A stretch of DNA of 44,171 nucleotides from a virus. How positions within the stretch are numbered: position 1 is the stretch's first letter; every line of letters begins with the position of its first letter. Position numbers and translations under genes: made by a program. The notes below the pieces were generated by a model. The model was not told where the DNA came from, did no database searches, and saw nothing but the letters and a program-made list of their open reading frames with translations. Of this stretch, positions 12,922-43,786 are shown one piece after another. Location of the stretch: the IMG/VR virus record IMGVR_UViG_3300000265_000005, positions 1 to 44,171 of that record, one strand, 5' to 3'.

Positions 12922-13566
12922 ATGAAATTAATATCCGAAGAAGTACAAAATGCCGAATACATCACTGAAGAAGTGAACGGCAAGAAGAATTATAAAATTA
13001 GAGGTGTCTTCTTACAATCCGAAATAAAGAATAGAAATGGACGTGTCTATGAAAAAGAGATACTTGAAAAGGAAGTAAGTAGATATAACGCAGAATTTAT
13101 TAATAAAAAAAGAGCATTTGGTGAACTTGGACATCCAGACAGTCCAACAGTAAATCTAGAGAGAGTATCACATATGATTACTACTCTTTATCCAGATGGT
13201 ACTAATTTTATTGGTGAAGCTAAGATAATGAACACACCTTACGGTAAGATTGTAAAAGGTCTTATAGATGAAGGCGCTCAATTGGGTGTATCATCTAGAG
13301 GTATGGGTTCTTTGTCACAAAGAGGTGGTGTTAATTACGTAGGTAGAGATTTTTATTTAGCTACAGCCGCCGATATTGTTGCAGATCCGAGCGCTCCAGA
13401 CGCTTTCGTAGAAGGCATAATGGAGAGTAAAAATTGGGTATGGGACAGTGGCGTTCTTGTTGAAAAGGACATTAGTGCCTGGAAAGCAAGTATTGAAAGA
13501 GCTAAAAGCGTTGCCTTAGCAGAAGCTAAAGCAGAGGTTTTTAAGGACTTTCTTAAAAAACTCTAG
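12922..13566 (+). CDS. 21: Prohead core protease gp21
   Basis: A 214-residue serine protease (T4 gp21 is 212) with the herpesvirus assemblin-type fold. It cleaves scaffold, core and capsid proteins after (L/I)xE-type sites as the prohead matures. The catalytic residues are visible: His71 in GELGHPDS, Ser124 or Ser125 in LGVSSRG, and an acidic residue in DIVADPSAPD (about 151-160). The motif order and spacing match the family. It has its own late promoter, and another separates it from the scaffold gene. Confidence 0.93.
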   Translation: MKLISEEVQNAEYITEEVNGKKNYKIRGVFLQSEIKNRNGRVYEKEILEKEVSRYNAEFINKKRAFGELGHPDSPTVNLERVSHMITTLYPDGTNFIGEAKIMNTPYGKIVKGLIDEGAQLGVSSRGMGSLSQRGGVNYVGRDFYLATAADIVADPSAPDAFVEGIMESKNWVWDSGVLVEKDISAWKASIERAKSVALAEAKAEVFKDFLKKL

Positions 13567-13633: not shown

Positions 13634-14824
13634 ATGTCAGAAAACTTAAAGAACATTGAAGCAACAACAGATCAAAATACGGCAGTGGCTGAAAATGCTA
13701 ACCCGAATGCTGATCTACCGAAAAAGAACGCTGTAGCGTCTGAACCAACTCACCTATCAAATGGTGCTGAGGATTTAGGTGCAGCTGTAGTTAAAAATAC
13801 AGATAGCAATCCGGATGCTTCAAAATCAACTAAAGAAGTTTCTGGTCAGGCTCCTCAAAAATCTGAAGGTGCTCCTGAGGCAATGCCTAAATTAGCAGGA
13901 CACAATACGAAATTAGAGTCTACAGAAACAAAAGCTGACGATAAAGAAACAGTTAAAGAAGGCGAAATGCCTGCTGGTCTGAAAAAATACCTTGACAAAA
14001 AAGACGACAAGGAAGCTGATACTAAAAAAGAAGAAGTTGAAGCGAAAAAAGATGACGAGAAAACAGAAACAAAAGAAAAAGACATAGACGTAAAAGAACA
14101 TGTTGACGCTCTTGTTGCTGGAAATGCTGACTTATCGGAAGAATTTAAAGACAAAGCCGCAACTATTTTTGAAACAGCAATTAAATCTAAAGTAAAAGAA
14201 ATCGCTGAAGAAATGGAAACGGATTACAACAAAAGATTCGAGGAAGAAACCTCTACAGCAAAAGCTGAGTTAGTGGAAAAAGTTGATTCTTACCTATCAT
14301 ACGTGGTAGAAGAATGGATGAAAGAAAACGAACTTGCTTTAGAAAGAGGAATCAAAGGCGAAATCGCTGAGGACTTTATCAGTGGTCTTAAAAAATTATT
14401 TGAAGATCATTACATAAATGTTCCAGACGAAAAATATAATGTGCTTGAAGATCAAGCTTCAAAAATTGAAACGTTAGAAAAGAAACTTAACGAATCAATT
14501 GAGAAGAATGTTGAATTAAGTAAGATAGGTAATAAGTACAAAGCGGCTGAAATTTTAGATGAAGCTTCTAAAGACCTTACTGACACTGCTAAAGAAAAAT
14601 TTAACAAACTTGCTGAAGAAGTGGATTATTCAACAGAATCAGATTACAGAGAAAAAGTTAAGACAATTAAAGAGTCTTACTTTAAATCTAAGGACGTTTC
14701 TGGTGACGGTATAGATGAAGTAGCGGCTGGCGAAGGAACTTCTAACGAAGACCTAAGCAATGCGATGGCTGCTTATAGTGCCGCTATAAGTCAAACAAAA
14801 GACATTAAATTGTCTAACAAATAA
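13634..14824 (+). CDS. 22: Prohead scaffold protein gp22
   Basis: A 396-residue scaffold (T4 gp22 is 269), the main internal core of the prohead. It is extremely charged and predicted to be helical and coiled-coil over much of its length, with a Lys/Glu/Asp-rich block at about residues 95-155. Residues about 155-330 resemble the gp22 central domain (SEEFKDKAATIFETAIKSKV and ... YLSYVVEEWMKENELALERG). The roughly 120-residue N-terminal Ala/Asn/Pro-rich extension is longer than in T4. It is degraded by gp21 during maturation. It is followed 22 nt later by the capsid gene. Confidence 0.9.
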   Translation: MSENLKNIEATTDQNTAVAENANPNADLPKKNAVASEPTHLSNGAEDLGAAVVKNTDSNPDASKSTKEVSGQAPQKSEGAPEAMPKLAGHNTKLESTETKADDKETVKEGEMPAGLKKYLDKKDDKEADTKKEEVEAKKDDEKTETKEKDIDVKEHVDALVAGNADLSEEFKDKAATIFETAIKSKVKEIAEEMETDYNKRFEEETSTAKAELVEKVDSYLSYVVEEWMKENELALERGIKGEIAEDFISGLKKLFEDHYINVPDEKYNVLEDQASKIETLEKKLNESIEKNVELSKIGNKYKAAEILDEASKDLTDTAKEKFNKLAEEVDYSTESDYREKVKTIKESYFKSKDVSGDGIDEVAAGEGTSNEDLSNAMAAYSAAISQTKDIKLSNK

Positions 14825-14846: not shown

Positions 14847-16181
14847 ATGTATTTATCAGAACAATACGAAAAAAAATGGCAGCCAGTTTTAGAGCATCCT
14901 GATTTACCAAAAATCGGTGATTCTTACAAACGTGCCGTTACTGCTACGATCTTGGAAAACCAAGAAAGAGCAATGAAGGAAGACAGCGCATTTATGACTG
15001 AAGCTGCTCCTACAAACAATACTGGTGGAACTTCAAATTGGGATCCAATTTTAATTTCATTAGTTAGAAGAGCAATGCCAAACCTTATCGCTTACGATAT
15101 CGCTGGTGTTCAACCAATGACTGGTCCAACTGGACTTATTTTCGCAATGAGATCAAGATATACTTCAGCAACTGGCGGAGAAGCGCTATTTGACGAAGCT
15201 GATACTGATTACTCATCTAGAAATGCTGCTGGTGATTCAGTTGCACATGACGGTGTTACAGAGCACAGAGGAACAAATCCTTCAGTTCTTAACGACAGTC
15301 CTGCAGGCGAATATACTAGAGGTCAAGGTATGACAACTGCGGCTGCTGAAGCATTAGGTGACGCTACTTCAAATGCATTTGCTGAAATGGCTTTCTCAAT
15401 TGAGAAAACTACAGTAACGGCTAGAAGTAGAGCTCTTAAAGCAGAATACACTATGGAACTTGCTCAAGATTTAAAAGCAATCCACGGTTTAGACGCTGAA
15501 ACTGAATTAGCAAACATTTTATCTGCTGAGATCCTTGCGGAAATCAACAGAGAAGTTGTTAGAGCAGTTTACATCAATTCAGAAAAAGGCGCTGCTACAA
15601 ACACAACTACTGCTGGTGTATTTGATTTAGATACAGACTCTAACGGTAGATGGTCAGTTGAGAGATTCAAAGGTCTTATGTTCCAATTGGAAAGAGACGC
15701 AAACAGAATCGCTCAAAGAACAAGAAGAGGTAAAGGGAACATGATTATTTGTTCTGCTGATGTCGCTTCTGCTCTACAAATGGCTGGTGTTTTAGATTAC
15801 ACGCCTGCTTTAAACAACAATCTAAACGTTGATGACACTGGTTCAACATTCGCTGGTGTATTAAACGGTAGATTTAAAGTATACATTGATCCATATAGTG
15901 CAAACTCAAGCGCAAGCCAATACTACGTTGTTGGTTACAAAGGTACATCACCTTATGACGCTGGTATGTTCTATTGTCCATATGTTCCACTACAAATGGT
16001 GAGAGCAGTTGGTCAGGATACTTTCCAACCAAAAATTGGTTTCAAAACTAGATACGGTTTAGTTGCGAATCCTTTTGCGGAAACTGGTGCTGTTTCAGGT
16101 GCAGTTACAGGAATCACAGATTCAGGTACACCTAACTCAAACAGATACTACCAAAAAGTTAAAGTATCAAACATCATGTAA
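14847..16181 (+). CDS. 23: Major capsid protein gp23
   Basis: A 444-residue HK97-fold capsid protein (T4 gp23 is 521). The probable gp21 cleavage site is after Glu52 (FMTE|AAPTNNTGG); the family consensus is (I/L)xE, so Met replaces the usual aliphatic residue. Conserved regions include WDPILISLVRRAMPNLIAYD, the MTGPTGLIFAMRSRY segment and 'ISPYAGMF'-like 'SPYDAGMFYCPYVPLQM' near the C-terminus. It is shorter than T4 gp23, as in other marine T4-like phages. It has an AGGGAGAT ribosome binding site and is followed by the strongest terminator in the window. Confidence 0.95.
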   Translation: MYLSEQYEKKWQPVLEHPDLPKIGDSYKRAVTATILENQERAMKEDSAFMTEAAPTNNTGGTSNWDPILISLVRRAMPNLIAYDIAGVQPMTGPTGLIFAMRSRYTSATGGEALFDEADTDYSSRNAAGDSVAHDGVTEHRGTNPSVLNDSPAGEYTRGQGMTTAAAEALGDATSNAFAEMAFSIEKTTVTARSRALKAEYTMELAQDLKAIHGLDAETELANILSAEILAEINREVVRAVYINSEKGAATNTTTAGVFDLDTDSNGRWSVERFKGLMFQLERDANRIAQRTRRGKGNMIICSADVASALQMAGVLDYTPALNNNLNVDDTGSTFAGVLNGRFKVYIDPYSANSSASQYYVVGYKGTSPYDAGMFYCPYVPLQMVRAVGQDTFQPKIGFKTRYGLVANPFAETGAVSGAVTGITDSGTPNSNRYYQKVKVSNIM

Positions 16182-16261: not shown

Positions 16262-16978
16262 ATGAGTGATAATAAAATTTTTGAAGGTATGAAATATCGT
16301 CATAATCCTAAATATAATAAAAGATTATTTCAGTCTAGCAAAGTAAATTTAGATTTATCTCATAGGTGTCCTTTAGAATGTTTGCGTTGTGCTAGACAAG
16401 ATAAAGATCAAAACGGAAATTCAATAAAGACTCCAGGTAGAGATATAACAATGGAAGAATTTGATAAGATATCTACTTACTTTGATAGAATACAATTTTG
16501 TGGTCAATATTCAGACCCTATACACCACCCTCATTTTATTGATATGTTAAAGATGATAAAAGAAAAAGGAAAAATAAGTCAAGTACATAATGCCTCATCA
16601 TTTAAATCAGATGAATATTTTGTAGAAGCTTTTAAGGCAAATCCTGATACACAATGGTGGTTTGGTATAGATGGTCTACCTAAACATAGTCATAAGTATA
16701 GAAAAAATCAAGACGGAGAAAAACAGTTTAGAAGATTGTTGTTAGCCAAAGAACACTTAAATAAATTACCTATATGGCAAATGATACTTTTTAGTTATAA
16801 TGAAAATGATTTAGATGAGTGTATAAAAATGGCTGATGAAGCTGGTGTAATATTTAATTTAATTAATTCTTCAAGATGGTATAAAGATGATGGTTCTGAC
16901 CCTTTAATACCTAAAGGCAAAGAAAAGTTACGTATAGAAGAACAAACATTTAATCCAAAGGTTGCAGTAATGCAATAA
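16262..16978 (+). CDS. Radical SAM protein (catalytic half)
   Basis: A 238-residue radical S-adenosylmethionine protein. Residues Cys36, Cys40 and Cys43 in HRCPLECLRC form the CxxxCxxC motif that binds the catalytic [4Fe-4S] cluster. Downstream are a partial barrel with FCGQYSDPIHHPHFIDM (the usual GGEP-like SAM-binding position) and a WWFGIDGLPKH segment. The protein ends just where a SPASM-type auxiliary cluster domain would follow, and that domain appears to be encoded by the next, separate reading frame. The substrate is unknown; family members modify peptides, nucleotides or cofactors. This position, directly after gp23, is otherwise free of T4 homologues. Confidence 0.8.
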   Translation: MSDNKIFEGMKYRHNPKYNKRLFQSSKVNLDLSHRCPLECLRCARQDKDQNGNSIKTPGRDITMEEFDKISTYFDRIQFCGQYSDPIHHPHFIDMLKMIKEKGKISQVHNASSFKSDEYFVEAFKANPDTQWWFGIDGLPKHSHKYRKNQDGEKQFRRLLLAKEHLNKLPIWQMILFSYNENDLDECIKMADEAGVIFNLINSSRWYKDDGSDPLIPKGKEKLRIEEQTFNPKVAVMQ

Positions 16979-16982
16979 ACCT

Positions 16983-17441
16983 ATGACAATAAAATTTAAT
17001 TTTCCACACGTAAGTGAATATGATGAACTAGCAAGGGTTCCTAGTAGAACAAATTTGTATGATGAAAATGGTAATGTTATAACAGATGAACAAAATGGTA
17101 TTAAGTCAGATATAACTATGAAACCTATGTGTTTTAAAGGTGACATGAATCTTGCTGTAGACAATAGAGGTCGTTTATTACCTTGTTGTCATTGTGATAC
17201 AAGAAATATGACAGGCGATAAAGAGTGGAGAAAACTGCTTGAAAAAAGTAAAATAGAAGACTATAATACGTTAGAAGAAATAATAGATAGTGAAGCTTGG
17301 AAAGCATTTTATAAATCACTACAACACAATAGAGGTCCTGTGGCCTGCTGGGATACATGTCGTAGTAATAAAAAGAAAAAAGACAAACAAGAAATGGTTG
17401 TTGCTGAAGGTGGTAAACTAAAAGCATGGGAAAGAAAATAA
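16983..17441 (+). CDS. SPASM-like auxiliary Fe-S domain protein, separate from the radical SAM half
   Basis: A 152-residue protein with cysteines at 50, 68, 69, 71, 122 and 126, arranged as MCFKGDMNLAVDNRGRLLPC, then CHCD, then PVACWDTC. This is the pattern of a SPASM or twitch domain that ligates auxiliary [4Fe-4S] clusters and normally forms the C-terminus of a radical SAM enzyme. It starts 4 nt after the radical SAM stop in the +1 frame and has no visible Shine-Dalgarno sequence, so it is likely translated by reinitiation. Its frame is open only from 16971, leaving about 8 nt of overlap with the upstream frame. The C-terminus is Lys-rich. Confidence 0.7.
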   Translation: MTIKFNFPHVSEYDELARVPSRTNLYDENGNVITDEQNGIKSDITMKPMCFKGDMNLAVDNRGRLLPCCHCDTRNMTGDKEWRKLLEKSKIEDYNTLEEIIDSEAWKAFYKSLQHNRGPVACWDTCRSNKKKKDKQEMVVAEGGKLKAWERK

Positions 17442-25299: not shown

Positions 25300-26040
25300 A
25301 TGGGAAGTACACAAAAAAATGTAATGAAGAAGCCAAAAGTACAGATGAATAAGATTTCTGCTAATGTAAATAAACAGAGTCCTAAGTCATATACAGATAA
25401 GGCTACAGATATGATGAAGAAGAAACCAGAGACAGGTTTTATTACACCAACAGATAACATAGATGATGGTACTTTTAAACTAGTACCACCAAGAGACCCT
25501 AGAATACAATCAGCAATAGCACCTTTTTCAGATGACATGCTAGAAGAACATGGTATCAAGGATAGACAAGAACTATCAGATAAAATGTTTAAGACAATGT
25601 TAAAATATGGTGGTATAGGTCTTACAGCGAATCAGGTAGGATTACCTTTTAACATGTTTGTTTTAGGTGCTCACGATCATATAGAAAAAGGTTTAAAAAT
25701 GGCATGTTTCAATCCATTTATAGTTACTAAAAGTGAGGAAGAAGTAGTAATGAAAGAGGGTTGTTTAACTTTTCCTTTTGTATTCATATCAAAAACTAGA
25801 CCAAGAAAAGTAGTTGTTAAGTATGAAGACGAGAACGGTGCCTTACAAGAAGGCCACCTTGATGGTGTTGTTAGTAGAGTATTCCAACATGAGTACGAAC
25901 ACACGTTAGGCAAGACTTTTATAGATGGTGTATCTAAAATGAAACTAGATATGGCATATAAAAAAGCAGGAAAACAAATGAAAGCCTATGAAAAACATAA
26001 GAAAGCCATGGAAAAAGTAGATAATAGAATGATTCCATAG
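25300..26040 (+). CDS. def: Peptide deformylase with an N-terminal extension
   Basis: A 246-residue enzyme that would remove the formyl group from nascent proteins. All three motifs are present: motif I GIGLTANQ (105-112), motif II EGCLTFP (Cys145 is a metal ligand) and motif III QHEYEH (His197, catalytic Glu198, His201). Ordinary peptide deformylases have HEIDH or HELDH; here it is HEYEH. Phage versions are typically short, but this one carries about 65 extra Lys/Asn/Gln-rich N-terminal residues and a basic C-terminal tail. Marine phage deformylases are known and are thought to support host protein (often D1) synthesis. It has a good GGAGAT ribosome binding site. Confidence 0.9.
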   Translation: MGSTQKNVMKKPKVQMNKISANVNKQSPKSYTDKATDMMKKKPETGFITPTDNIDDGTFKLVPPRDPRIQSAIAPFSDDMLEEHGIKDRQELSDKMFKTMLKYGGIGLTANQVGLPFNMFVLGAHDHIEKGLKMACFNPFIVTKSEEEVVMKEGCLTFPFVFISKTRPRKVVVKYEDENGALQEGHLDGVVSRVFQHEYEHTLGKTFIDGVSKMKLDMAYKKAGKQMKAYEKHKKAMEKVDNRMIP

Positions 26041-26080: not shown

Positions 26081-27421
26081 ATGACAGCAGTACCAAAAGA
26101 AGACTTTGATATACACGCTAAGCAAGATTTAGAAGGCGTTGAGAAAAAGTGGCAACAGTTTCAAGACGAAAATGATATATCTAATTTAGAAGATATAGAC
26201 GAGAGAGTACTTAAAGAAGCCATAGAAAAAGACCTTGGTTACGTGTCCAAAATGACAGTACAAGAGTATACATTATTTCAAAAGTGGCAAGAAGTACATA
26301 GAAAATATCCTACAACCGAATCAACTACACTGTATGGTACTGAAAAAATATTAACATCACCTGAACAAAGAACTCAAATAGATACAGTTAGAAACAATAT
26401 CTGGATTCCCGAATCACCTGAAGATTATGATAAGTTAGAACCTGTATTAGAATTTACAGATGATAGTACAAAGAATTTCAAAGGCAAAGCAGTAAGAACT
26501 GCCAAACTATCAGAGAACTGGAATACATTAAGAACTTTCCTATCTACTATGAAAAACAATAGTAATATTGGTAGACAGTTATTCTTTAATGTAAATGATA
26601 ATAGATCAGGTAAACATTTAGGTGTCATTTGTATATCTGGTGACTTTATGGATTTAACACCTAGAGACAGTGCTATTGGTTGGGATAGACAGAGTAAAAC
26701 TTTTGGTGGTATGATTAATCATACAGCAATTGGCTCTTCTATTGTACCAACACAACCACTAGGTTACAGTTACACAGGTGGTAAACTATTAGCATATCTA
26801 TGTTTATCAGATGAAGTACAGAGAATATGGCAAGAAAAGTATGGTGACAAACTAGTTGGTGTTACCACAACATCTTTATATGGTAAGGCAAAAGCAAATA
26901 CATTAAGTCAATACGATGGTTTAAAATACTGGAAACGTATGGGTTTTACTATGGGGTCAGTATCATATGAACCACAACCAGAAACTAAAAAACTAATTAA
27001 ACAATGGTTAAAGAAAAATCATACTAGAAAATACTTTGAATGGTATGAGGCAACAAGAGCCAACGGCCAACCATTAAAGAGAGATCATAAGAATAGATCA
27101 TATATGTTTACCTATTCTAAAATGGGTATAGATAAAAAACTAATTAAAACAGATCATGCTAGAGGTATCTATTTTGCAAGATTATATGAAAACACTTATG
27201 AGTATTTAAGAGGTGAAGTAAAAGATGACGGTCTAATATCTAGATTTGATTCGTCTACCGAAGCATTAGTTAAAGTATGGAAAGATAAACATGCCTCTAA
27301 AAGAATTAAAAACTTACTAGCAACCGATAGATTCTCTAAAGAATCACACTTCTATGATGATTTAATATACCTTGATTGGGAACAGTGCAAGGAAAAGTAC
27401 TTAAATCAGGTAGGGAGATAA
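26081..27421 (+). CDS. DUF4338/DruA-like protein, copy 1
   Basis: A 446-residue protein. Residues about 165-292 match what I know of the DUF4338 (DruA) family: GKHLGVICISGDFMDLTPRD, AIGWD (198-202), IVPTQPLGYSYTGGKLLAYL (221-240), a helix ending in QEKYG, then TTTSLYG and SQYDGLKYWKRMGFT. In DruA proteins the equivalent order is an LG-x-L strand, PRDRWIGWD, a conserved 'LASxxL' helix, YG, LLETFVD and a Y/W-rich 'GTCYRAANW' segment. DruA is a component of the Druantia anti-phage system; the biochemical activity is unsettled. The N- and C-terminal thirds are charged and unrecognised. A diverged paralogue is at 42689. The family link is from memory of the motif pattern, so it is moderate. Confidence 0.6.
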   Translation: MTAVPKEDFDIHAKQDLEGVEKKWQQFQDENDISNLEDIDERVLKEAIEKDLGYVSKMTVQEYTLFQKWQEVHRKYPTTESTTLYGTEKILTSPEQRTQIDTVRNNIWIPESPEDYDKLEPVLEFTDDSTKNFKGKAVRTAKLSENWNTLRTFLSTMKNNSNIGRQLFFNVNDNRSGKHLGVICISGDFMDLTPRDSAIGWDRQSKTFGGMINHTAIGSSIVPTQPLGYSYTGGKLLAYLCLSDEVQRIWQEKYGDKLVGVTTTSLYGKAKANTLSQYDGLKYWKRMGFTMGSVSYEPQPETKKLIKQWLKKNHTRKYFEWYEATRANGQPLKRDHKNRSYMFTYSKMGIDKKLIKTDHARGIYFARLYENTYEYLRGEVKDDGLISRFDSSTEALVKVWKDKHASKRIKNLLATDRFSKESHFYDDLIYLDWEQCKEKYLNQVGR

Positions 27422-31213: not shown

Positions 31214-31420
31214 ATGTCTGGAATAAAAATAGATGTAAGAAACGGAAACGTAGAACAAGCATTGCGTGTATTAAAACGTAAGTATCTTAAAGATAATTTT
31301 TTAAAAACTTACAAAGAAAAAATGTATTTTGAAAAACCTTCGGATAAAAAACGAAGAAAAACAAAAGAAATGATTGCTAATAGCAAGAAAGCAAAAAAAT
31401 TACGTGAAAGAAATTTATAG
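31214..31420 (+). CDS. rpsU: Ribosomal protein bS21 (phage-encoded)
   Basis: A 68-residue protein matching bacterial S21 (71 residues in E. coli): IKIDVRNGNVEQALRVLKRK, then LKTYKEKMYFEKPSDKKRRK, ending in a Lys/Arg-rich helix. In E. coli bS21 sits on the 30S platform near the anti-Shine-Dalgarno region of 16S rRNA and helps initiation. Phage copies are known, including in a pelagiphage, and could replace the host protein on ribosomes. The upstream AAAGG is about 14 nt from the ATG, an unusually distant ribosome binding site. It is flanked by the hairpin at 31125 and the structured region at 31421. Confidence 0.92.
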   Translation: MSGIKIDVRNGNVEQALRVLKRKYLKDNFLKTYKEKMYFEKPSDKKRRKTKEMIANSKKAKKLRERNL

Positions 31421-35933: not shown

Positions 35934-35941
35934 TATAAATA
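35934..35941 (+). promoter_or_regulatory. T4-type late promoter between gp44 and tRNA-Thr
   Basis: A perfect TATAAATA inside the replication operon, with a start expected near 35947. It would transcribe the small frame at 35998, tRNA-Thr, and possibly gp62 onward late in infection. Confidence 0.65.
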
Positions 35942-36220: not shown

Positions 36221-36613
36221 ATGTACGAATTAAAAGACTATTTAAAAGCAATAAACGAATCAAAAGAGAACCTTTTGAACTCCACCGATACGGCCTGGAC
36301 TAAAAAATACCCTCCATACATCATAAATAAGTGTTTATCCATGTTCTATGACACACTAGCACATGCTAATGAAATGAATGGTTATCACTTCTTGGACAAA
36401 GATATACAGTTTACTTTTTTACTAAATAGTATCAGACCAAAGAAACGTTTTGGTGGCCGATGGCTTAAGCAAACAAAACTAAATGACTTGGAATATGTTA
36501 AAGAGTATTATGGCTATAGTAATGAAAAAGCAAAGCAAGCCCTATCTATACTCACAAAAGAACAAATTAATAAGATTAAAGAAGCCACATACAAAGGCGG
36601 GAGAACTAAATGA
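36221..36613 (+). CDS. 62: Clamp loader small subunit gp62
   Basis: A 130-residue homologue of T4 gp62 (187 residues), the single non-ATPase subunit that completes the 44/62 clamp loader. The patterns 'YELKDYLKAINESKENLLNS', 'KYPPYIINKCLSMFYDTLAH' and 'LLNSIRPKKRFGGRWLK' are clear family features. It is shorter than T4 gp62 at the C-terminus, as is usual in marine relatives. The stop overlaps the regA ATG (aaATGA). Confidence 0.9.
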   Translation: MYELKDYLKAINESKENLLNSTDTAWTKKYPPYIINKCLSMFYDTLAHANEMNGYHFLDKDIQFTFLLNSIRPKKRFGGRWLKQTKLNDLEYVKEYYGYSNEKAKQALSILTKEQINKIKEATYKGGRTK

Positions 36614-37050
36614 ATGAAGAAGTTAAGTGGTTGCAAGATAGCATGTTAGAAGTAATGTTAACTCAACCAGATGATTTTTTAAAGGTCAGAGAAACACTTA
36701 CTAGAATAGGTGTCGCAAGTAGAAAAGATAAAACATTATTTCAATCTTGTCATATTCTACATAAACAAGGAAAATATTACATAGTACATTTTAAAGAGTT
36801 GTTTGCTTTAGACGGCAAGAAAGCAACTCTAATCAATAACGATATTCAACGTAGAAATACTATTGCTATATTATTACAAGACTGGAATTTAATAGATATT
36901 GTTGACAAAGAAACAGCAAAATCAAACAAGGCACCATTATCACAAATTAAAGTATTACCATTTAAAGAGAAAAAAGAGTGGATATTATCTGCTAAATATA
37001 ATATAGGTAAGAAAATAGTTAAGGAAGATAATGCAGATACCAAAGTTTAA
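36610..37050 (+). CDS. regA: Translational repressor RegA
   Basis: A 146-residue homologue of T4 RegA (122 residues), an RNA-binding protein that occludes the start sites of early mRNAs, including its own operon in T4. The pattern 'MLEVMLTQPDDFLKVRETLTRIGVAS' and 'LFQSCHILHKQGKYYIVHFK' and 'RRNTIAILLQDWNLIDIV' is diagnostic. The C-terminus is extended by a basic segment. T4 operon order (45-44-62-regA-43) is preserved with insertions. It overlaps the next gene by 20 nt. Confidence 0.93.
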   Translation: MNEEVKWLQDSMLEVMLTQPDDFLKVRETLTRIGVASRKDKTLFQSCHILHKQGKYYIVHFKELFALDGKKATLINNDIQRRNTIAILLQDWNLIDIVDKETAKSNKAPLSQIKVLPFKEKKEWILSAKYNIGKKIVKEDNADTKV

Positions 37051-38512
37051 AGACTATATAACAGAGAACAAACAGACACGTAAGGATAAAGCAATGACAG
37101 TTGCTATCCTAACTATAAACGATTCAGATAAACCTAACAAGGATTCAACTGTTGAACTTATAGAAAAAGCTTGTATCAAACAAAAGATTAAATGTATTAT
37201 AGTCAATACAAAAACAACCATTATCACAGGTAAAGATGAAGATAAGAACACCCTAACGGTGTTTAACTACGATGGTAAGAATGGTGAACATACTTTCGTA
37301 GGTAAAGATACTGCCTGTATAACAAGAGGTGGTGCAGTGGAAGACGAAGCTGGACTATCTTTAATATCTGCCTTTCAAAATTCACAATCATTTATGATGA
37401 ACACAAGAGCTTCTATGCTTACTTGTGATAACAAACTAACATCAGCTTTACTATTTGAAAAGCATGGTATACCTACACCAAGAACAGCATTTATATCTAA
37501 CGAGAAAAACATTAAAACTGGACTAGATTTAATTGGTGGTAAGTTTCCACTTATATTAAAAACACTAACAGGTACACAAGGTGTTGGTGTAGTTAAGATA
37601 GAAAGTTATGAGGGCCTAGTTGCCACTGTACAAGCGATGTGGAAATTAGGTGCTGAACTTTTGATACAAGAATTTATGCCTACAAAATTTGATGTAAGAA
37701 CTTTTGTAGTAGATAATAAAGTTATTGCAAGTACAAAAAGAGTACATAGTAGTTATGACTTTAGATCAAACACCCACAGAGGTGCTGAGGCAATGCCTTA
37801 TATTTTAAACGATGAAGAACACGAATTAGCTTTAAAGGCTTCAAGAGCTTCTAAAGCATATATGGTTGGAGTTGATCATATAGTATTTAAAAATAAACCA
37901 TATATTTTAGAAATCAATGGTAGTCCAGGATCAGGTGCTGACTATCAAGGTTATCAATACAAAGATTACTATTCAGACCCAGAACCATCTGGTAGAATAG
38001 ACGGAGAAAAAATGATGGAGTATCTAGTAGACTATATTTCAGATAGAACTAATTGGGATAGACAATCAATTTTAGAATGTGGTTGGTTAGAAACGGTAGA
38101 ACTAGAAGACGGTATGAAAGTTAGAGCAAAATTAGATACAGGTAACGGTGCCAAAGCATGTGCTTTACACGCCGATGATATTTTAAGTAAAGATAAAATT
38201 GTTAAATGGAAATATAATGGTAAAACTTATAGTAAACCAAGACACGGTATAAGTAAAGTATTCAGAGCAAATGCTGAAGGAGAAGAACCATCTGAAACAA
38301 GACCAACGATTCTTATGGATATTACATTTAATGGTTTCACATATAAAGATGTTGAAGTAGGATTAGACAATAGACCAAGAGCACATTCAGACTTACTTAT
38401 CAATAGAGAATTAATGAGACAAATGAACGTTAGTGTTAACCCTAATAGAACATTTGTATTAAGTAAAAGACTAAAACCGGTTGACAAAGACTACGACAAA
38501 GACGAAGAATAA
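37031..38512 (+). CDS. RimK-like ATP-grasp ligase fused to a RimB-like aspartic protease domain
   Basis: A 493-residue fusion. Residues about 22-340 are an ATP-grasp ligase of the RimK type: PTPRTAFIS, FPLILKTLTGTQGVGVVKIE (ATP-binding loop), LIQEFM, and the metal motif ILEINGSPG. RimK adds glutamates to the C-terminus of ribosomal protein bS6 in bacteria. Residues about 350-480 resemble RimB/DUF785 retropepsin-like proteins: VRAKLDTGNGAKACALHADD (the DTGA-type catalytic Asp motif) and a later 'RAHSDLLINRELM'. The first 12 residues, MQIPKFKDYITE, resemble the T4 capsid-targeting peptide (MKTYQEFIAE) with an (I/L)xE cleavage site. An AAGGAAG ribosome binding site supports the 37031 start, which keeps this peptide. 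Confidence 0.82.
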   Translation: MQIPKFKDYITENKQTRKDKAMTVAILTINDSDKPNKDSTVELIEKACIKQKIKCIIVNTKTTIITGKDEDKNTLTVFNYDGKNGEHTFVGKDTACITRGGAVEDEAGLSLISAFQNSQSFMMNTRASMLTCDNKLTSALLFEKHGIPTPRTAFISNEKNIKTGLDLIGGKFPLILKTLTGTQGVGVVKIESYEGLVATVQAMWKLGAELLIQEFMPTKFDVRTFVVDNKVIASTKRVHSSYDFRSNTHRGAEAMPYILNDEEHELALKASRASKAYMVGVDHIVFKNKPYILEINGSPGSGADYQGYQYKDYYSDPEPSGRIDGEKMMEYLVDYISDRTNWDRQSILECGWLETVELEDGMKVRAKLDTGNGAKACALHADDILSKDKIVKWKYNGKTYSKPRHGISKVFRANAEGEEPSETRPTILMDITFNGFTYKDVEVGLDNRPRAHSDLLINRELMRQMNVSVNPNRTFVLSKRLKPVDKDYDKDEE

Positions 38513-42682: not shown

Positions 42683-42688
42683 ATGAAG

Positions 42689-43786
42689 ATGAAAACATTA
42701 ACAAATGATCAAGCACTATATTGTGCTAATATATTCAATGACTACTTTGAAAAGTTTAGTCGTATAGATGAGTATATGAGAGATCAAAAGTTATCTCAAA
42801 TAGGAGATGTACCATCTGCTTTGCCTGGCATGGGCCTAGAGGGTACTATATTTTCTAAATTTGATATGTCGCCTAAAGATATGGAATTTGAAATACTAGA
42901 GCCAGATAATGAAACATATGATACATTATTAAACATGACTTCTTCTCATACTAATATGTCAAGTGTACCTGGTAAAAATTTAAAGATTGCAGTAAGAGAA
43001 AAGAATAGTGGTCAGTGGGTAGGTTTTATAAGATGTGGTTCTCCTGTTATAAACATGAAACCAAGAAACGATTTGTTAACTCATGTACCAGAATTAGTAA
43101 GTTTTAATAAGACTTCTATCATGGGATTTGTAATAGTACCAACTCAACCTTTTGGTTTTAATTATCTAGGTGGTAAACTGTTGGCTGCTATATGTTGTAG
43201 TCATACTATAAGAGAAAAATTAAATGACAAATATGGTATGAACTTATCATTGTTTGAAACTACAAGTCTATATGGTAATAGTAAATCATCAAGTCAATAT
43301 GATGGCATGAAACCATATTTAAGATACAAAGGTTTAACTGATAGTGATTTTATACCTTTGATACATGGTAAACCTTTCCACGATCTTGCCTCTTTTGTTG
43401 AACAAAATGTAGGTAAACTTATTAAAGATGACGCCTCTAGTAGAAAGTTAAAACTAACAACTGCCATTATTGGTTTAGTAAAAAGAAGTTTAGACAAAAC
43501 TAATTTAGAAAGATTTAATACAACTATAAGTAATGCTAAGAAACTAACTGAAAGAAAAAGATATTATGTTAGTGACTATGGTATCAAGAACTATCTAGAT
43601 GTAGTAAAAGATAACAAGACAGAGATTATTAAAGGTGAGAATTGGGATAAATTTAACCTAAATAATATCATAGATTGGTGGAAGAAAAAGGCCGAGTCTC
43701 GTTATAATAAACTGAAACAAGAAGATAGATTAAGGAGTGAGTTAGAGGTATGGACACCAGACGCAAAAATAGATATAATAAGATAA
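42689..43786 (+). CDS. DUF4338/DruA-like protein, copy 2
   Basis: A 365-residue diverged paralogue of the protein at 26081. The shared core is IVPTQPFGFNYLGGKLLAAI (149-168; copy 1 has IVPTQPLGYSYTGGKLLAYL), then a helix ending in LNDKYG, then ETTSLYGNSKSSSQYDGMKP against TTTSLYGKAKANTLSQYDGL. The upstream strand QWVGFIRCGSP replaces HLGVICISGDF, and the IGWD-like motif is not evident, so this copy may have lost part of the active site. The C-terminal 130 residues are Lys-rich and unrecognised. I chose ATG 42689 from the promoter position. The stop overlaps the next ATG. Confidence 0.6.
   Translation: MKTLTNDQALYCANIFNDYFEKFSRIDEYMRDQKLSQIGDVPSALPGMGLEGTIFSKFDMSPKDMEFEILEPDNETYDTLLNMTSSHTNMSSVPGKNLKIAVREKNSGQWVGFIRCGSPVINMKPRNDLLTHVPELVSFNKTSIMGFVIVPTQPFGFNYLGGKLLAAICCSHTIREKLNDKYGMNLSLFETTSLYGNSKSSSQYDGMKPYLRYKGLTDSDFIPLIHGKPFHDLASFVEQNVGKLIKDDASSRKLKLTTAIIGLVKRSLDKTNLERFNTTISNAKKLTERKRYYVSDYGIKNYLDVVKDNKTEIIKGENWDKFNLNNIIDWWKKKAESRYNKLKQEDRLRSELEVWTPDAKIDIIR

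What the first reader, a model, noticed from the sequence alone, without database searches (positions are those of the whole stretch)
37031..38512. RimK-RimB fusion with a capsid-targeting-like N-terminus: an injected ribosome modifier?
The ligase (RimK) and the RimB-like aspartic protease are separate proteins in bacteria but fused here. The first twelve residues, MQIPKFKDYITE, copy the layout of the T4 internal-protein targeting peptide (MKTYQEFIAE), which ends in an (I/L)xE site cut by gp21; here the cut would follow Glu12. In T4, proteins with that peptide (IPI-III, Alt) are packed in the head and injected with the DNA. A packaged RimK-RimB enzyme could act on host ribosomes from the first minute.
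Basis: partly seen in the sequence, partly recalled or inferred. Interest (0 to 1): 0.72.

Follow-up and report, generated by a model that had tools for sequence, protein, structure and literature searches.

The report
Head-packaged RimK-RimB enzyme of marine phages
A widespread marine T4-like phage gene encodes a fused protein-tail-adding and protein-tail-cutting enzyme whose first 12 amino acids match the tag T4 uses to load proteins into its head, so the enzyme is probably carried in the virus particle and injected, though its target in the host is unknown.

Summary
The ORF is real (37031-38512, 493 aa): a RimK-type ATP-grasp ligase joined to a RimB-type retropepsin domain with its DTG motif, lying between regA and DNA polymerase in a T4-like marine myovirus.

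The N-terminal claim holds up better than expected. Review literature says T4's capsid-targeting sequence (CTS) depends on residues 4 and 7 (targeting) and 8 and 10 (processing). The same register here, F6, Y9, I10 and E12, is what stays fixed: 122 of 127 relatives found with core-only queries keep [FYL]xx[FY][ILVF]xE at the N-terminus, while other positions drift. Chance is about 0.2-0.4% per protein. In T4 the pattern picks ipII and ipIII. In cyanophage S-CREM2, with published virion mass spectrometry, it marks 5 of 15 virion-detected non-structural proteins against 1 of 128 others (p = 4e-5). A distant RimK-RimB homologue is recorded as a YerA41 virion protein, though without this tag. Packaging by a CTS and gp21 cleavage after Glu12 is therefore likely (about 0.75).

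The ribosome target is unsupported: the protein is far below the S6-ligase cutoff. "Separate in bacteria" is also inexact: RimBK hybrids exist, in reverse domain order. New variant of a known kind.

The parts
37031..38512 (+). RimK-RimB fusion protein, 493 aa
37031..37066 (+). CTS-like N-terminal peptide MQIPKFKDYITE; predicted gp21 cut after Glu12
   Evidence: Register F6-Y9-I10-E12 equals T4 Y4-F7-I8-E10; conserved in relatives found by core-only queries; F6 and E12 invariant in 27 sequences
37427..37930 (+). RimK-like ATP-grasp domain (aa 133-300); D282, E294, N296 invariant
   Evidence: PF08443 E 4e-38
38081..38464 (+). RimB-type retropepsin domain (aa 351-478)
   Evidence: PF05618 E 2.7e-7; NCBIfam RloA3 match well below its cutoff
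38135..38143 (+). DTG catalytic motif of the retropepsin domain (aa 369-371)
   Evidence: DTG or DSG in all fused relatives aligned
36610..37050 (+). regA translational repressor; overlaps the fusion gene's first 20 nt
   Evidence: PF01818 E 6.5e-46
12922..13566 (+). gp21-type prohead protease, predicted to cut the tag; own N-terminus holds AEYITEE
   Evidence: phrog_207 E 1.2e-76
13634..14824 (+). gp22-type scaffold core, predicted partner of the tag
   Evidence: phrog_237 E 1.4e-82
14847..16181 (+). major capsid protein with predicted gp21 site AFMTE|A after residue 52 (T4: SFLTE|A)
   Evidence: phrog_138 E 1.1e-168
31214..31420 (+). phage bS21 ribosomal protein (context only)
   Evidence: PF01165 E 3.7e-15

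Best explanation
The gene encodes an internal head protein of a marine T4-like myovirus: a glutamate-ligase (RimK-type) enzyme fused to a poly-glutamate-trimming retropepsin (RimB-type), carrying a T4-type capsid-targeting propeptide. Shown by sequence: the two domains, the tag-like N-terminus, its selective conservation, and the phage's own gp21/gp22/gp23. Inferred: the tag binds the gp22 core and brings the enzyme into the prohead; gp21 cuts after Glu12 during maturation; the mature enzyme leaves the head with the DNA and acts in the first minutes of infection by adding and/or trimming glutamate tails on a host protein. The target is not known; a ribosomal protein is possible but is only one candidate.
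For: (1) T4 mutational work, summarised in PMC9026906: residues 4 and 7 target, 8 and 10 allow processing. The same four register positions are the constrained ones here: relatives found with queries lacking the N-terminus keep the motif in 74 of 75 (Mosig type) and 48 of 52 (Melnitz type) cases, over 24 and 22 different peptides. (2) Identity across clades is only 29-34%, yet F6 and E12 are invariant in 27 sequences. (3) Melnitz-type genes carry it with no overlap onto regA. (4) Pattern specificity: in T4 only ipII and ipIII among 205 ATG-start proteins of at least 80 aa, plus the small gene 61.1 in the looser scan; with the strict form one ORF in the whole 141-kb Mosig genome and one in the window, both this gene. 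(5) In S-CREM2, 5 of 15 virion-detected non-structural proteins carry it against 1 of 128 others, p = 3.6e-5. (6) A YerA41 RimK-RimB homologue is recorded as a structural protein, and that phage's virions were analysed by LC-MS/MS. (7) Unfused cyanophage RimK proteins of S-RIM and S-CAM8 lack the tag. (8) gp23 has the matching cleavage site.
Against: No virion proteomics was found for this phage or for Mosig or Melnitz. The YerA41 homologue recorded in virions lacks the motif. The gene sits in the replication cluster; the only late-promoter box upstream (35934) is not conserved in relatives. Codons 1-6 overlap regA in the window and in Mosig, which constrains part of the peptide there. The pattern was settled after seeing this family and T4, and was slightly widened for the S-CREM2 test. 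A second cyanophage, S-SCSM1, gives only one virion hit (NMNAT) and one non-virion hit. S-CREM2's authors note that co-purification is possible. No substrate evidence.
Confidence: 0.7

Rival explanations
1. The tag takes the enzyme into the prohead, but its job is in assembly: it glutamylates or trims a core or capsid protein, or is mere cargo, and does nothing in the new host cell.
For: RimB cuts internal and terminal poly-Glu (PMC11957791); in T4, IPIII appears to help head assembly.
Against: No poly-Glu target was identified here; relatives can lack the gene (HTVC008M has no RimK at this place), so it is not needed for head assembly in general.
Confidence: 0.15
2. The enzyme is an ordinary cytoplasmic auxiliary enzyme made early; the N-terminal peptide has another role such as binding a partner protein, and resembles a CTS by convergence.
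For: Location in the regA-polymerase cluster; no direct virion data.
Against: The same peptide type occurs on unrelated virion-detected enzymes and on the DUF6267 and QZI94748 proteins; constraint falls on the T4 targeting and cleavage positions.
Confidence: 0.15
3. The N-terminal conservation is forced by the overlap with regA rather than by selection on the protein.
For: The first 20 nt overlap the end of regA in the window and in Mosig.
Against: Y9, I10 and E12 lie outside the overlap; Melnitz has no overlap but keeps the motif.
Confidence: 0.03

Closest known systems
T4 capsid-targeting sequence of IPIII/IPII, cut by gp21
   Same: Aromatic-x-x-aromatic-Ile-x-Glu at the extreme N-terminus, same spacing; phage has gp21, gp22 and a gp23 site of the same type
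   Different: Two residues longer; cargo is a two-domain enzyme of about 480 aa; packaging not shown experimentally
Bacterial RimBK hybrid (Desulfotalea psychrophila DP2392; Flavobacteriales, Rhodobacterales), PMC11957791
   Same: RimB-type retropepsin and RimK-type ligase in one chain
   Different: Domain order reversed (RimB first in bacteria, RimK first here); no CTS reported
Yersinia phage YerA41 QSM00767 (recorded as structural protein)
   Same: RimK-RimB order, homologous over both domains (28.9% identity); recorded as a virion protein
   Different: No CTS-like N-terminus; a different kind of phage; annotated only as glutathione-synthetase-like
Pelagibacter phage Mosig QOI68969 ('putative glutathione synthetase')
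   Same: Same domain order, same gene neighbours, CTS-like MQVQPFKNYLEEA
   Different: 31% identity; annotation misses both RimK and RimB
Cyanophage 'ribosomal protein S6 glutaminyl transferase' (S-RIM8/12/32, S-CAM8)
   Same: RimK-type ATP-grasp
   Different: No RimB domain, no tag, different genome position
T4 Alt
   Same: Packaged enzyme with an N-terminal propeptide that modifies host proteins at once
   Different: ADP-ribosyltransferase, a different enzyme; its propeptide sequence differs

Membership tests
T4-type capsid-targeting sequence | Aromatic residues at targeting positions (4 and 7 in IPIII) | tested here: met
   F6 and Y9; F6 invariant in 27 aligned sequences, position 9 always F or Y
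T4-type capsid-targeting sequence | (I/L)xE processing site (8 and 10 in IPIII) | tested here: met
   I10, E12; E12 invariant in 27, position 10 I, L or F
T4-type capsid-targeting sequence | Located at the extreme N-terminus of the translated protein | tested here: met
   Starts at Met1 with AAGGA upstream; Met22 not conserved
T4-type capsid-targeting sequence | Phage has gp21-type protease and gp22 core | tested here: met
T4-type capsid-targeting sequence | Protein is in the virion, cleaved after Glu | not testable with these tools
   No proteomics for this phage; indirect support only
RimK family alpha-L-glutamate ligases | TIGR00768 above cutoff, ATP-grasp Mg ligands | tested here: met
   150.9 bits against 143.4; D282, E294, N296 invariant; their role as Mg ligands is from general knowledge of RimK
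Ribosomal protein S6 ligase (RimK proper) | NF007764 equivalog cutoff | tested here: not met
   103.5 bits against 331
RimB/RloA-type retropepsin | PF05618 above cutoff and DTG motif | tested here: met
   31 bits against 27; DTG 369-371
RimB/RloA-type retropepsin | NCBIfam RloA3 equivalog cutoff | tested here: not met
   27.7 bits against 210
RimB/RloA-type retropepsin | Cleaves poly-glutamate | not testable with these tools
   needs purified protein
Bacterial RimBK hybrid | RimB domain N-terminal to RimK | tested here: not met
   Order is RimK then RimB

The most novel reading that the evidence does not exclude
Marine T4-like phages carry in the head a self-contained glutamylation writer-eraser, injected with the DNA, that rewrites glutamate tails on a host translation component before any phage gene is expressed; the short N-terminal code also marks a whole set of injected enzymes in marine T4-like phages that can be read directly from genomes.
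Probability: 0.25. Interest if true: 0.85.

Novelty: new variant of a known kind. Interest (0 to 1): 0.64.

Why it matters
Which proteins marine T4-like phages inject is largely unknown. If the N-terminal code holds, head-packaged host-takeover enzymes can be predicted from sequence in very abundant ocean phages, and this gene family gives a testable first case: a packaged enzyme with both a tail-adding and a tail-trimming domain. Isolates with a tagged gene exist (Mosig on Pelagibacter with the fusion, Melnitz on a Methylophilales strain with RimK alone), so one virion proteome would decide it.

Tried and rejected
Conserved late promoter as evidence of late expression: a TATAAATA at 35934 lies upstream of the tRNA-Thr/62/regA/RimK-RimB genes, but most relatives lack it, so it was not used. 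Close relatives of the YerA41 homologue in viral contigs: none found. Bacterial fusions of the same domain order: the one genome scan returned only ATP-grasp partial matches apart from one contig that looks like a phage misplaced in a bacterial assembly, but the scan used a single pattern, so absence is weak. Met22 start: rejected, not conserved. Overlap with regA as the cause of conservation: rejected by Melnitz-type genes. S-SCSM1 as a replicate: direction consistent but too few hits to count. Defence-system assignment: no PADLOC hit.

Full report
What is there. The reported ORF is correct: 37031-38512, plus strand, 493 aa. The window is a 44-kb virus record with T4-like order: neck, terminase, sheath, tube, portal, gp21, gp22, gp23, then gp45, gp44, tRNA-Thr, gp62, regA, this gene, a small DUF6561-like gene, a ferredoxin and DNA polymerase gp43 (gp45, gp44 and gp43 were named by position and by the same order in Mosig). 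Its capsid protein is 86% identical to Pelagibacter phage Mosig and 74% to Methylophilales phage Melnitz. Pfam gives RimK ATP-grasp at aa 133-300 (E 4e-38) and Zn_protease/RimB at aa 351-478 (E 2.7e-7, above the curated cutoff). NCBIfam places it in the RimK family above cutoff, but far below the cutoff of the S6 ligase equivalog. An AlphaFold model (mean pLDDT 77) matches solved RimK chains best; residues 1-20 average pLDDT below 50, with a short helix at 6-9.

Relatives. A search with the whole protein found 78 viral loci: a clade 70-100% identical and a clade about 33% identical that shares the first 12 residues while the following residues differ. Because one search pattern was the N-terminus itself, I repeated the search with core-only queries from Mosig and Melnitz. 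The N-termini read out from those hits keep [FYL]xx[FY][ILVF]xE in 74 of 75 Mosig-type and 48 of 52 Melnitz-type genes, over 24 and 22 different peptides; the positions between vary more freely. In a 27-sequence alignment F6 and E12 are invariant. In Melnitz the gene starts just after the end of regA without overlap, so its motif cannot be explained by the reading-frame overlap seen in the window and Mosig. Cyanophage RimK proteins without a RimB domain (S-RIM8, 12, 32, S-CAM8) start directly with the enzyme and have no tag.

Is it a capsid-targeting sequence? A review of the T4 work states that ten residues of IPIII suffice, that residues 4 and 7 govern targeting and 8 and 10 processing (PMC9026906). 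MKTYQEFIAE and IPKFKDYITE align so that Y4, F7, I8, E10 fall on F6, Y9, I10, E12, the very positions that are kept. The pattern is rare: 0.2-0.4% of proteins would have it near the start by chance. In T4 it picks ipII and ipIII and, in the looser scan, also the small gene 61.1. In the complete Mosig genome the strict pattern has one hit and in the window one hit, both this gene. The phage's own gp23 carries AFMTE|AAPTN where T4 has SFLTE|AEIGG, so the predicted protease specificity agrees.

A test on measured virions. Synechococcus phage S-CREM2 has a published virion proteome with coordinates (PMC10665884). Of its non-structural proteins among ORFs 1-84 and 134-205, the part of the genome I read, 5 of 15 detected in virions begin with the pattern (SAM hydrolase MKDFDSFLEE, APH-like kinase MKRFDAFLTEE, cytidylyltransferase MKNFSSFLTEAD, gp13, gp136), against 1 of 128 not detected; Fisher p = 3.6e-5. 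The virion-detected Cas9-like nuclease has RFASFMAEAA a little further in. The pattern was fixed in two near variants before this test and joined, with the window widened from 16 to 20 residues, for the test. A second phage, S-SCSM1, has too few hits to add weight: the virion NMNAT (MKSFLQFLKEAA) and one non-virion protein. In Melnitz, two neighbouring proteins also carry the tag (MQGFKTFLSEA and MLTLINFSKYITED); the second is DUF6267, whose relatives have a changeable N-terminus of this type ending just before a fixed DKGGKNLHLEH.

Evidence for a relative. Yersinia phage YerA41 encodes a protein homologous over both domains, recorded as a structural protein; that phage's 63 particle proteins were found by LC-MS/MS at 5% FDR (PMC7354516; its protein table was not available to me). 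It lacks this tag, so it supports packaging of the enzyme type, not the tag.

What it does. RimB of Pseudomonas is a retropepsin-like protease that trims poly-glutamate and stimulates RimK; the bacterial RimBK hybrid tested has protease activity but did not glutamylate Pseudomonas S6 (PMC11957791). Here the order is reversed. By analogy the phage enzyme adds and trims glutamate tails. The window also encodes bS21 and a peptide deformylase, so an interest in translation is plausible, but nothing shown here fixes the target. I put packaging at about 0.75, injection with activity in the host at about 0.55, and a ribosomal target at about 0.25.

Novelty. The gene family sits in databases under misleading names, T4 capsid targeting is classical, and virion-associated enzymes in cyanophages have been reported. 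I found no paper in the held library linking a T4-type targeting peptide to marine T4-like phages or a RimK-RimB enzyme to capsid targeting. It is a new variant of a known kind, with a readable code as its wider consequence.

Noticed in passing
L086:12203-14525 (Melnitz) and loci L122-L201: DUF6267 proteins, with relatives in about 400 T4-like phage records, have a changeable N-terminal peptide of the form M..F...[LI].E followed by an almost fixed DKGGKNLHLEH; they look like further capsid-targeted proteins.
   Followed up: partly
L375:7704-10313 (S-CREM2 gp12): A Cas9-like nuclease detected in virions has a tag-like RFASFMAEAA near its N-terminus; an injected Cas9-like nuclease would be odd.
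   Followed up: no
L376 gp160 (128342-129235 of OR473000) and S-SCSM1_97 (93121-93306 of MK867354): Two virion-detected proteins carry a copy of the capsid protein arm just after its cleavage site (GFTGAAAPEGPxAGYDPLM in gp160).
   Followed up: no
window 31, 40, 7650, 12885, 13570, 17442, 32740, 35934: All eight TATAAATA late-promoter boxes are on the + strand and intergenic, although intergenic DNA is 5.4% of the window.
   Followed up: partly
window 26081-27421 and 42683-43786: Two DruA-like (DUF4338) proteins in one phage fragment.
   Followed up: no
window 31214-31420 and 25300-26040: Phage-encoded ribosomal protein bS21 and peptide deformylase.
   Followed up: no
window 16262-17441: Adjacent radical-SAM-like and SPASM-like ORFs, perhaps a split enzyme.
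   Followed up: no
T4 gene 61.1 (NC_000866 18966-19130): Starts MKTFKEFIKED, CTS-like; a possible unrecognised T4 internal protein.
   Followed up: no
L089 (NHEU02000038.1): A contig of the bacterial assembly TMED93 carries an 84%-identical Mosig-type fusion gene; it is probably a phage contig binned with the bacterium.
   Followed up: no
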